From Acidimicrobiales bacterium (lineage in GTDB: Bacteria; Actinomycetota; Acidimicrobiia; Acidimicrobiales; Aldehydirespiratoraceae), in assembly GCA_029263175.1 (NCBI GenBank), contig JAJCXZ010000098.1, positions 1 through 58,930 of the forward strand: a stretch of 58,930 bases of DNA, read 5' to 3'. A model generated the notes under the pieces. That model ran no database searches, was not told the origin of the DNA, and saw only the letters and a program-made list of their open reading frames with translations. This document shows, one piece after another, positions 42,434 to 44,959 of the stretch. The position numbers and the translations under genes were made by a program. Each line of letters starts with the position of its first letter. Within the stretch, counting starts at the first letter, position 1.

Positions 42434-42898
42434 TTAGTCCTCGAAACGCGAGGCGAAGCCGATTCGCAACGCCGGTTCGAAGATCTGCTCGACCGCGGCC
42501 CACATCGAGCCGAGGATCCGGTCGAGTTCAACCTCGGTTACGGCTGCCACCGGCAGCGAGCCCGCGAGGAAGACAGCTTCCTCCTCGCCGATCTCCAGGT
42601 TCAGACCGGTGAGCTTGCGGTTGCGACGGAGAAGGTGAGCGTAGAACTCGCTCTCGTTCTCTTCGGGCGCAGGCATCACATACGTCTCGTAGCGAAGGGT
42701 CCGCTGACCGAGAGTCAGCCACGCAGTCCAGACGTCCTTCTCTTCGCCGAGCAGGCGCACGTACCAGCGCACGATGTCACCGGTGTCTCGTTCGACCGTG
42801 TCGATCGCGGGATTCGCGGCCGACTCGCTTTCGAGCCACTCGTCGATTCGGGCTTCGAGCGCGGCCAGTTCCTCAGGCGACGCGGGAGGCGACTGCAC
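42434..42898 (-). CDS. YbjN-domain protein
   Basis: 154 residues from a GTG that overlaps the mshA stop by one base. The core DVWTAWLTLGQRTLRYETYVMPAPEENESEFYAHLLRRN...LNLEIGEEEAVFLAGSLP is the YbjN (type III chaperone-like) fold. Mycobacteria also have a YbjN-like gene next to mshA, so the pairing is conserved beyond this organism. The function of this group is not established, and a chaperone or regulatory role is commonly suggested. Confidence 0.88.
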   Translation of the reverse strand: MQSPPASPEELAALEARIDEWLESESAANPAIDTVERDTGDIVRWYVRLLGEEKDVWTAWLTLGQRTLRYETYVMPAPEENESEFYAHLLRRNRKLTGLNLEIGEEEAVFLAGSLPVAAVTEVELDRILGSMWAAVEQIFEPALRIGFASRFED

Positions 42899-44109
42899 TA
42901 CGCCAGGCAGTCGACGAGGGCGCGAGCCGAAAGGTCGTCGTAGACGCGCCGCAGGCGTGCTGCCATCGATGTCCAGGTGTAGGCGCTCGCAGCTTCAGCG
43001 GCCCGCAACGAGAGCCGGTCAGCGAAGACCGGGTCGCCGAGGATCCGGTCAACGGCTGCTGCGAAGTCGGCGGGGTTGCGGCCACTCACCCGGAGGCCGG
43101 TGCGGCCGTGGTCGACGAGTGTGCGCAGGCCGCCGACATCAGAGGCCACGACAGGCGTACCGCACGCGGCGGCTTCGAGCGCCACGAGACCGAAGGACTC
43201 GGACCGGCTCGGTACGAGGCAAAGATCAGCGGCCCGGTAGTACGTCGACAACACGTGGTGCGGCTGGGGCGGGATCATGGTGACCCGGTCGACGAGACCG
43301 CGATCGTGGATGATCTTCTCCACGCGTCGAACCTCGTCGTCGCCCTCGAGGCCGCTGGACCCGCCGACGATCACGAGGCGAGCGTCGGAACGCCCAACCA
43401 GATCGAGTGCTTCGACTGCGACGTCGACACCCTTGAGCGGCTGGATCCGGCCGACGAACAAGAGCACGGGTTCCTGTCCCCAACCGAGCGCGTGGCGAGC
43501 ACCACGACGGGTGCCAGGAGAGAAGAAGGCGTGATCCACACCGGGCGGCACCACCTCGATGCGATCTGGGTCGGCGCCGTAGTGCGTGACGAGTTCATGC
43601 AGCTCGGTGACCGAGTTGGCGGTGATGACATCGCTGCATGCGATGACGTCGGCTTCGGCATCGATGCGATCCTGAGGCTCGAGATCACCGGTTTCGGCCT
43701 TGACGCGAGCGAGCGTGTGGAACGTCGAGACGAGCGGCAGCTCGAGTTCGTGCTTGAGGCGATGACCGGCGACACCACTGAGCCAGTAGTTGGCGTGGAT
43801 GACGTCGACGGGGTGCTCGAGGAGATCGGCACGAACGCGATCGGTGAACTCGTCCACGATCGACGGCAAGTCTTCCTTGGCGAGATCGACCGGACCGGCG
43901 TCGATGTGGCGCACCCGACAGCCGGGTTCGACCTCGACCACATCGGCCAGGCCCTCGGCCCAGCGACGCACATAGACGGTGCATTCCGTGCCGGCCTGGG
44001 CCAGCGAAGACACCAGCTCCCGGACGTAGACGTTCATTCCACCCGCGTCGCCGCCGCCTGGCTGGACCAGAGGGGACGTGTGCAAGGAAAGAACGGCTGC
44101 TCGGTTCAC
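42898..44109 (-). CDS. mshA: D-inositol-3-phosphate glycosyltransferase (mycothiol synthesis)
   Basis: Transfers GlcNAc from UDP-GlcNAc to inositol-phosphate, the first step of mycothiol synthesis. 403 residues, GT4 family, GTG start. The MshA hallmark LSLHTSPLVQPGGGDAGGMNVYV is at the N-terminus (given here as contiguous motif pieces LSLHTSPLVQPG and GDAGGMNVYV). ANYWLSGVAGHRLKHEL and the donor-site SESFGLVALEAAACGTPVVA are also typical. Mycothiol is the actinobacterial thiol, so this gene supports the taxonomic placement. Other msh genes are not in the window. Confidence 0.92.
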   Translation of the reverse strand: MNRAAVLSLHTSPLVQPGGGDAGGMNVYVRELVSSLAQAGTECTVYVRRWAEGLADVVEVEPGCRVRHIDAGPVDLAKEDLPSIVDEFTDRVRADLLEHPVDVIHANYWLSGVAGHRLKHELELPLVSTFHTLARVKAETGDLEPQDRIDAEADVIACSDVITANSVTELHELVTHYGADPDRIEVVPPGVDHAFFSPGTRRGARHALGWGQEPVLLFVGRIQPLKGVDVAVEALDLVGRSDARLVIVGGSSGLEGDDEVRRVEKIIHDRGLVDRVTMIPPQPHHVLSTYYRAADLCLVPSRSESFGLVALEAAACGTPVVASDVGGLRTLVDHGRTGLRVSGRNPADFAAAVDRILGDPVFADRLSLRAAEAASAYTWTSMAARLRRVYDDLSARALVDCLA

Positions 44110-44168: not shown

Positions 44169-44726
44169 TCAGGTAGGGCTCACGGGCGCTTCGCCCCCGG
44201 CGATGCGGCGGGCGAGCTCGTCGTTGATGGAGTCGATAGCACTGTGAAGGAAGTGGCGAGCGCTCGACAGCTCCTCTTCGAAGTTGGCGAGAGCAATCAC
44301 CGCAGCGGAGAGAGCATCGTCCTCGAGATCGGCAACGGAGGTGACCACGTTGGGGCCAACGGCTCTGTCGAGTTTGTCGGTGAGCGGGTCGACGACATGG
44401 TCCGGCGGGTCGAGTTCTTGCTCCACACGGCCACTTCCGGCCCCGCGAACGCCGCCGCTCAACATCTCTGGCAGTCGCTCGACAAGGTCGCGCAGACTCC
44501 CGCCGCCGCCGTTGGTACGGCTCTCGGTCTCCTTGGCCAACAGGTCAAGGCGACCCTGGGCAACCCGGCGGACATAGGACAGGCCGTTCTCGAGATCGGT
44601 GCATTCCCGACGCATCTCACGGACACGATCGGTCGGCACGTCGACCAAACCGGACAGGTAGGTCGGCTCAAGCACGCGTTGCAGGTCAGGAATCATCGGA
44701 GCGGAGCCTACCGGCCTGAGCTTCAC
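44169..44726 (-). CDS. RsiG-like c-di-GMP-binding anti-sigma factor homologue
   Basis: 185 residues from a GTG overlapping the previous stop. Two helical segments carry the spacing E-x3-S-x2-R-x3-Q-x3-D that defines c-di-GMP binding in RsiG. Copy 1 is exact (Glu46, Ser50, Arg53, Gln57, Asp61). Copy 2 has Glu150, Ser154, Arg157, His161 and Asp165, with Gln replaced by His. In Streptomyces RsiG holds the sporulation sigma factor WhiG inactive when c-di-GMP is bound. No WhiG-type sigma gene is in the window. A disordered Gly-rich linker lies at 70-110. Confidence 0.85.
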   Translation of the reverse strand: MKLRPVGSAPMIPDLQRVLEPTYLSGLVDVPTDRVREMRRECTDLENGLSYVRRVAQGRLDLLAKETESRTNGGGGSLRDLVERLPEMLSGGVRGAGSGRVEQELDPPDHVVDPLTDKLDRAVGPNVVTSVADLEDDALSAAVIALANFEEELSSARHFLHSAIDSINDELARRIAGGEAPVSPT

Positions 44727-44959
44727 CCGCCTGAAACGGGTGGGAGCACGGCGACTTCGTCGCTGTCGACAACAGCCTGATCACGGTCGGCGGGTTCGCC
44801 GTTGCACCACACTTTGCAGGTGTCGAGCAACCCCACGAAATGGGCGCCGTAGCGTTCGCCGGCCTGGTCGAGGATCTCCCCGACCGTGGCGCCGGGGAAC
44901 TCATCAGACCCTGTTCCGGCCGCCTCTCGGGCACTCGCGAACAGTCGAAGTCGAGCCAT
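44723..44959 (-). CDS. MoaD/ThiS-family sulfur-carrier protein
   Basis: 78 residues with a beta-grasp fold pattern: MARLRLFASAREAAG at the start and DEVAVLPPVSGG at the end. The C-terminal Gly-Gly needed for adenylation and thiocarboxylation is present. The ending VAVLPPVSGG is typical of MoaD (molybdopterin synthase small subunit), but the absence of moaE nearby leaves the exact role open. It is the first gene of the run leading to mshA and proC. A molybdenum hydroxylase is encoded about 6 kb away, so a cofactor need exists. Confidence 0.88.
   Translation of the reverse strand: MARLRLFASAREAAGTGSDEFPGATVGEILDQAGERYGAHFVGLLDTCKVWCNGEPADRDQAVVDSDEVAVLPPVSGG

What the first reader, a model, noticed from the sequence alone, without database searches (positions are those of the whole stretch)
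44169..44726. RsiG-like protein with one perfect and one altered c-di-GMP motif
Both helices show E-x3-S-x2-R-x3-(Q/H)-x3-D with identical spacing. The first is exact (46/50/53/57/61); the second has His161 for Gln. RsiG links c-di-GMP to WhiG and sporulation in Streptomyces, while deeper lineages have single-motif versions. This two-motif version with a substitution, in a non-Streptomyces setting beside mshA, may be an evolutionary intermediate or control a different sigma factor.
Basis: partly seen in the sequence, partly recalled or inferred. Interest (0 to 1): 0.65.

Follow-up and report, generated by a model that had tools for sequence, protein, structure and literature searches.

The report
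Twin-motif RsiG anti-sigma factor, Acidimicrobiales
This gene encodes an ordinary member of a known switch protein that probably holds a partner sigma factor inactive while the signal molecule c-di-GMP is bound; its 'altered' motif is the commonest form among the relatives examined, and comparisons suggest the switch controls grappling-hook pili in many of its relatives.

Summary
The ORF is an RsiG (PF22802 matches twice, E 1.2e-23; S. venezuelae RsiG E 2.4e-12). The predicted fold is a long helical hairpin whose best PDB match is S. venezuelae RsiG.

Twin-motif RsiG is already reported from Acidimicrobiales (3 of 4 species, PMC8325347). I found RsiG in 247 of 395 genomes of the class. Gln in motif 1 with His in motif 2 is the commonest combination (35 of 90). 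It is not an intermediate: the two helices are 18% identical, the lowest of 91 proteins (mean 30%).

The genome has a WhiG orthologue (63% identical to S. venezuelae WhiG) that keeps the residues contacting c-di-GMP; its second FliA-type sigma does not. RsiG and WhiG co-occur: 237 both, 10 and 16 alone, 132 neither.

New here: WhiG-type promoters (TCAAG-N15-GCCGATA, at most one mismatch) precede ORFs in 24 of 40 type IV pilus regions from RsiG+/WhiG+ genomes, against 1 of 20 from genomes where neither was found. The window's own pilus genes show only weak candidates.

The parts
44169..44696 (-). rsiG coding sequence, likely true start ATG at 44696 (175 aa); the longest ORF runs to a GTG at 44726
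   Evidence: ORF; Pfam RsiG; start conserved in relatives
44514..44633 (-). first long helix (residues 32-71 of the 185-aa reading)
   Evidence: AlphaFold2 model, mean pLDDT 90.0, pTM 0.83
44544..44591 (-). c-di-GMP motif 1, E46-S50-R53-Q57-D61
44199..44321 (-). second long helix (residues 136-176)
44232..44279 (-). c-di-GMP motif 2, E150-S154-R157-H161-D165
42898..44109 (-). mshA-like glycosyltransferase gene (name from recall), 59 nt downstream of rsiG on the same strand, probably the same operon
   Evidence: order kept in 14 of 14 named close relatives
44723..44959 (-). MoaD/ThiS-like small protein gene just upstream of rsiG on the same strand (name from recall)
42434..42898 (-). YbjN-like gene downstream of mshA (name from recall)

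Best explanation
The gene encodes the RsiG anti-sigma factor of an uncultured Acidimicrobiales bacterium. As in S. venezuelae, one chain folds into an antiparallel two-helix coiled coil whose two E-x3-S-x2-R-x3-(Q/H)-x3-D motifs grip a c-di-GMP dimer. The loaded protein then clamps the sigma2 and sigma4 domains of WhiG (contig C26 of the same genome) and keeps it off RNA polymerase. When c-di-GMP falls, WhiG is released. Q57 and H161 would each stack on a guanine, so His is a functional equivalent. In this class the WhiG regulon most likely includes the type IV pilus genes. Shown here by computation: identity, predicted fold, motif conservation, the WhiG partner with its contact residues, co-occurrence, and WhiG-type promoters in the pilus clusters of relatives. 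Inferred: ligand binding, the stacking roles, WhiG inhibition, and pilus control in this particular genome.
For: RsiG domain twice, E 1.2e-23. S. venezuelae RsiG by sequence and fold: 6pfv_B TM 0.67/0.76, Z 13.8 against 9.0 for the best unrelated chain. Motif Ser and Arg are invariant in 90 of 90 relatives on both helices. WhiG orthologue: E 1.3e-94 to 6pfj_A, 63% identity, K36/G40/R41 matching K57/G61/R62 of S. venezuelae. Co-occurrence 237/10/16/132 in 395 genomes. One RsiG gene in the genome and 32 GGDEF matches. In the same family, G205 has a broken rsiG and no WhiG found at E 1e-50, while its congeners G271 and G392 have both. WhiG-type promoters at ORFs in 24 of 40 pilus regions of RsiG+/WhiG+ genomes against 1 of 20 regions from 17 genomes where neither was found.
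Against: No binding or regulation was measured. In the window's own pilus cluster I found only weak promoter candidates: CTCAAG, a short spacer and GCCGATGG before pilB, and GCCGATGG without a good -35 before pilA. The published consensus at spacer 15 is not enriched in the own genome (44 against 68 control). 37 of 247 RsiG+ genomes have neither a strong PilT nor flagellin, including the close relatives G271 and G392, so pili cannot be the whole regulon everywhere. 10 genomes have RsiG without WhiG and 16 the reverse; incomplete assemblies explain some of these at most. At up to two mismatches the refined promoter pattern exceeds its control in the RsiG-/WhiG- pilus regions as well (38 against 14). 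Genomes sharing ancestry are not independent.
Confidence: 0.9

Rival explanations
1. It is an RsiG that partners the second FliA-type sigma (contig C83) or another sigma instead of, or as well as, WhiG.
For: The genome has a second sigma over the FliA/WhiG cut-off (200.6 bits, cut-off 189.6).
Against: That sigma keeps only one of the three c-di-GMP contact residues (K-F-Q against K-G-R) and is 37% identical to S. venezuelae WhiG against 63% for the C26 protein. RsiG tracks WhiG across the class.
Confidence: 0.05
2. It is an evolutionary intermediate between single-motif and twin-motif RsiG.
For: It has two motifs that differ at one site, and Acidimicrobiales lie outside the main families with RsiG (PMC8325347).
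Against: Helix identity is 18%, the lowest of 91 proteins (S. venezuelae 34%, mean 30%). Both motifs are strongly conserved in 90 of 90 class proteins examined at Ser and Arg. Twin-motif forms were already reported from the order (PMC8325347).
Confidence: 0.02
3. It keeps the RsiG fold but no longer senses c-di-GMP (a constitutive or differently regulated anti-sigma).
For: His161 departs from the S. venezuelae residue, and helix 2 is otherwise diverged from helix 1.
Against: Nine of the ten motif residues are canonical, and His occurs in a single-motif RsiG shown to bind c-di-GMP (PMC8325347). The genome has 32 GGDEF matches.
Confidence: 0.03

Closest known systems
S. venezuelae RsiG (PDB 6PFJ/6PFV, twin-motif, monomeric)
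   Same: Two motifs with the same spacing on a hairpin, same predicted fold, WhiG orthologue with the same contact residues.
   Different: 31-33% identity over the fold; His for Gln in motif 2. A sporulation role was not examined here.
Twin-motif RsiG of Acidimicrobiales (3 of 4 species in PMC8325347)
   Same: Same order and same architecture; this gene is a further member.
   Different: In the sections I read, that paper gives no motif variants or regulon for this order.
Rubrobacter / Thermoleophilia single-motif RsiG (PDB 7LQ2-7LQ4 for Rubrobacter)
   Same: Same motif; in Rubrobacter the switch is proposed to control type IV pili, which matches the promoter pattern found here in relatives.
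   Different: Those are short and homodimeric; this one carries both motifs in one chain.

Membership tests
RsiG (PF22802) | RsiG domain by profile, both repeats | tested here: met
   E 1.2e-23, 83.1 bits, cut-off 27, two stretches; both repeats over cut-off in the genome search, 55.7 and 32.4 bits
RsiG (twin-motif) | Two E(X)3S(X)2R(X)3[Q/H](X)3D motifs | tested here: met
   46/50/53/57/61 and 150/154/157/161/165; His at the fourth place is an accepted variant (PMC8325347 for motif 1; 52 of 90 relatives in motif 2)
RsiG (twin-motif) | Antiparallel coiled coil with a linker, RsiG fold | tested here: met
   Predicted, not solved: pLDDT 90.0, helices 32-71 and 136-176; 6pfv_B TM 0.67/0.76, Z 13.8, rmsd 3.9, 156 aligned
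RsiG | Cognate WhiG in the genome with the three c-di-GMP contact residues | tested here: met
   C26 sigma, E 1.3e-94 to S. venezuelae WhiG, K-G-R kept
RsiG | c-di-GMP made in the organism | tested here: inconclusive
   32 GGDEF matches, but catalytic residues were not checked
RsiG | Binds c-di-GMP | not testable with these tools
   needs a binding assay
RsiG | Sequesters WhiG in a c-di-GMP-dependent way | not testable with these tools
   needs purified proteins or two-hybrid
WhiG type IV pilus regulon (as proposed for Rubrobacter) | Flagellar-type promoters before pilus genes | tested here: inconclusive
   Clear in relatives (24 of 40 regions); only weak candidates in the window's own genome

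The most novel reading that the evidence does not exclude
[quoted passage not shown] Pilus control would then be the older role, and sporulation a later recruitment. In this class the guanine-stacking pair also follows a rule: at least one of the two residues is aromatic (His, Phe or Tyr), and the Gln/Gln pair of S. venezuelae was not seen (0 of 90).
Probability: 0.55. Interest if true: 0.5.

Novelty: new member of a known kind. Interest (0 to 1): 0.35.

Why it matters
As an anti-sigma factor the protein is expected. The comparison around it matters more. If the WhiG-type promoters before pilus genes are used in Acidimicrobiia, the same c-di-GMP switch runs pili in two separate actinobacterial lineages, with both the single-chain and the two-chain form of RsiG. 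That would support the view that sporulation control in Streptomyces was added later. The Phe, Tyr and His variants at the stacking site are ready-made natural mutants for testing how RsiG reads the c-di-GMP dimer.

Tried and rejected
Promoter consensus TAAA/GCCGATAA with a 14-16 nt spacer and no mismatch in the own genome: no match. Spacer 15 with up to 2 mismatches: 44 matches against 68 for the reversed control, so mostly chance. The two one-mismatch sites lie in a contig that looks alphaproteobacterial (L011) and in L012 pointing into the end of a gene.

Spacers 13-17 were then scanned in 40 pilus regions of relatives. Spacer 16 stood out (57 against 12, though the control had one exact match and the forward pattern none), spacer 17 weakly (19 against 9), the others not. 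In 60 RsiG-flanking regions spacer 16 gave 13 against 5. The refined consensus TCAAG-N15-GCCGATA was derived from the spacer-16 sites of those same pilus regions, so its score there is partly circular. The published consensus, apart from the choice of spacer, is independent of them and shows the same contrast (57 against 12 in RsiG+/WhiG+, 9 against 11 in the others). At up to 2 mismatches the refined pattern is also above its control in the RsiG-/WhiG- set (38 against 14), which tells against a clean contrast.

Partial scan of the own genome with the refined pattern (77 loci, 379 kb, some overlapping, and 28 of them brought in by a similar pattern): 3 matches with one mismatch at spacer 15; 4 at spacer 14, one before pilB, equal to the control's 4; at up to 2 mismatches 45 against 16 reversed at spacer 15, duplicates removed from the first count only. 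Flagella as the regulon: no flagellin found in the own genome, and 181 of 247 RsiG+ genomes have none. Evolutionary intermediate: rejected. Pfam also lists HTH_Cmi2_C below its cut-off and DUF7174 weakly, and NCBIfam a weak HrpB2 match; all ignored.

Limits of samples: the 90 RsiG proteins are the 30 best-scoring loci plus 60 of the further places listed, so they lean towards strong matches. One of them (L115) was dropped from the helix comparison by its length rule. The 40 pilus regions were picked by hand from the best PilT rows (229 of 395 genomes are over the cut-off), one per genome; 19 of the 40 genomes also have flagellin. The 20 control regions come from 17 genomes, 12 of them of one family, f5. 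Of the 22 genomes, G288, G371, G377 (56-75% complete) and G100 (500 contigs) were left out before the scan, and G364 was not fetched. 'Absent' WhiG means none at E 1e-50 among the few candidates scored per genome.

Full report
WHAT IS THERE. The minus-strand ORF 44169-44726 encodes 185 aa from a GTG. In 11 of 14 named close relatives the longest ORF starts at MI(P/R)(D/E)L, so the ATG at 44696 (175 aa) is the likely start. Pfam RsiG matches in two stretches, E 1.2e-23, and the best solved relative is S. venezuelae RsiG, E 2.4e-12 over residues 34-183. The AlphaFold2 model has mean pLDDT 90.0, pTM 0.83 and long helices at 32-71 and 136-176. Foldseek puts four S. venezuelae RsiG chains first (TM 0.63-0.67 by query; the next hit has E 0.94), and VIA-align gives Z 13.8 (rmsd 3.9, 156 aligned) against 9.0 for the next unrelated chain; for long helices Z below about 13 would mean little by that tool's own note.

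WHERE IT IS. The window is contig C98 of a 4.4-Mb assembly, 97% complete with 3% contamination. The nearest named relatives are uncultured MAGs, titled Acidimicrobiales, Acidimicrobiaceae, Acidimicrobiia, Actinomycetes or Actinomycetota; the best RsiG is 87% identical. The MoaD-like, mshA and YbjN-like genes lie around rsiG on one strand in 14 of 14 of these. In the wider class, mshA follows within 1.4 kb on the same strand in 32 of 60 loci, mshA and YbjN-like both in 25, and the MoaD-like gene lies upstream within 2.7 kb in 44. In the window the gaps are 26 nt before rsiG (from the likely ATG) and 59 nt after it (coordinates), so an operon is likely. The names of the neighbours are from recall.

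THE 'ALTERED' MOTIF. Among 90 class proteins, the fourth motif residue in helix 1 is Gln 57, His 33; in helix 2 it is His 52, Phe 21, Gln 15, Tyr 2. Combinations (helix 1/helix 2): Q/H 35, Q/F 21, H/H 17, H/Q 15, Q/Y 1, H/Y 1, Q/Q 0. Ser and Arg are present in both helices in 90 of 90. All 14 named close relatives have Q/H (12, 2). So the form in the window is the commonest in the sample. PMC8325347 (Results in full, Discussion and one Methods section read) reports Gln-to-His as frequent in motif 1 of 130 twin-motif homologues, says His is suited to the same stacking contact, and measures c-di-GMP binding by the His-bearing Conexibacter protein. It also reports twin-motif RsiG in 3 of 4 Acidimicrobiales. 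What I did not find in the sections read is the mirrored pattern (His or Phe in motif 2) or the absence of Q/Q in this class.

NOT AN INTERMEDIATE. The two helices share 18% identity here, 34% in S. venezuelae and 30% on average over 91 of the 92 aligned proteins, against 9% when the register is shifted. The window protein is the lowest of the 91, so it is the most diverged from the duplication, not nearer to it.

THE PARTNER. Two sigma factors exceed the FliA/WhiG cut-off. The C26 protein is 63% identical to S. venezuelae WhiG (E 1.3e-94) and keeps K, G and R at the places that contact c-di-GMP in the crystal structure (places from PMC8325347); the C83 protein is 37% identical and has K, F, Q. 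Of 30 WhiG loci, the own one included, 26 have K-G-R and 4 K-S-R. The C26 gene sits beside xerC-like and dprA-like genes (names from recall); PMC4255298 (passages read) notes that whiG-like genes share local synteny in actinobacteria. Over 395 genomes of the class, RsiG and WhiG at E 1e-50 occur together in 237, RsiG alone in 10, WhiG alone in 16, neither in 132. A telling case is G205, in the window's family. Its rsiG lacks the stretch before the motif-1 Ser, runs through three reading frames, and has Cys for the motif-2 Arg; no WhiG was found at that threshold, while its congeners G271 and G392 have both. An assembly error in that MAG is not excluded.

WHAT IT MAY CONTROL. No flagellin was found in the own genome, but it has a type IV pilus cluster on C49: PilT by profile (404.6 bits), with pilA, pilC and pilB beside it by their sequences (names from recall). 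It has 32 GGDEF matches. A strong PilT match (E below 1e-40) is found in 203 of 247 RsiG+ genomes and 36 of 148 others. Following the Rubrobacter approach of PMC8325347, I scanned 40 pilus regions of RsiG+/WhiG+ genomes (603 kb). TAAA-N16-GCCGATAA with up to 2 mismatches gave 57 sites against 12 for the reversed pattern; 35 of the 57 lie between 25 nt inside and 150 nt before an ORF start. The refined TCAAG-N15-GCCGATA with at most one mismatch gave 42 against 0. 29 of these are just upstream of an ORF of 100 codons or more, in 24 of 40 regions; by eye 26 of the 29 ORFs look like prepilin, PilB-like, PilM-like or DUF4388-like genes (recall, from the N-termini). In 20 pilus regions of 17 genomes where neither protein was found it gave 2 against 1, and 1 of 20 regions has one before an ORF. 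At up to 2 mismatches the refined pattern gave 133 against 20 in the first set and 38 against 14 in the second, so the contrast is strong but not absolute. The signal is not due to flagella alone: 13 of 21 regions from flagellin-free genomes have it, 11 of 19 from the rest. Shared ancestry makes the p-values optimistic, and the control set is phylogenetically narrow (12 of 17 genomes from one family).

In the window's own cluster the candidates are weak: CTCAAG, a short spacer and GCCGATGG just before pilB, and GCCGATGG without a good -35 before pilA. The close relatives with RsiG and WhiG (G271, G392) lack a strong PilT, so in this family the regulon may be something else. 37 of 247 RsiG+ genomes have neither a strong PilT nor flagellin.

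LITERATURE. Full-text searches for RsiG with Acidimicrobi (2 papers), WhiG with type IV pil and c-di-GMP (5 papers), WhiG with Acidimicrobi (4 papers) and Acidimicrobi with type IV pil and c-di-GMP (2 papers) listed no title or abstract start that describes this regulon in the class; PMC8325347 gives the general frame. The library holds only open-licence papers, and most of the listed papers were seen as listings only. PMC13232838 (abstract start in the listing, passages) adds that in Streptomyces the phosphodiesterase RmdB competes with RsiG for WhiG.

VERDICT. A correctly spotted, ordinary twin-motif RsiG with its WhiG. The sequence oddity is normal for its class. The part worth following is pilus control in Acidimicrobiia.

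Noticed in passing
G205:C43:14500-19500 (L222:2018-2472): Broken rsiG (stretch before the motif-1 Ser missing, three reading frames, motif-2 Arg replaced by Cys) in a genome where no WhiG was found at E 1e-50, in the genus of two genomes with both: perhaps a natural joint loss.
   Followed up: partly
L042, L046, L055, L057, L060, L065, L068, L072 and others: Phe (21 of 90) or Tyr (2 of 90) at the guanine-stacking place of motif 2; the Gln/Gln pair is absent in 90 class proteins.
   Followed up: partly
G000:C83:10898-11560 (L004): A second FliA-type sigma in a genome where no flagellin was found, with a C-terminal extension and without two of the c-di-GMP contact residues; role unknown.
   Followed up: partly
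pilus regions L227-L266: A DUF4388-like gene (name from recall; starts such as MSLQGTLETFPL) with a WhiG-type promoter is seen in several pilus regions.
   Followed up: no
G000:C6 (L011, L015): Contig with pdxJ-acpS-lepB-like order (names from recall) that looks alphaproteobacterial; perhaps a contaminant of the assembly (3% contamination).
   Followed up: no
37 of 247 RsiG+ genomes, e.g. G271, G392, G035: RsiG with neither strong PilT nor flagellin; what the switch controls there is open.
   Followed up: no
window:42434-44959: MoaD-like - rsiG - mshA - YbjN-like order is kept in 14 of 14 close relatives, and mshA follows rsiG in 32 of 60 wider loci, tying a c-di-GMP regulator to a mycothiol gene (names from recall).
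   Followed up: partly
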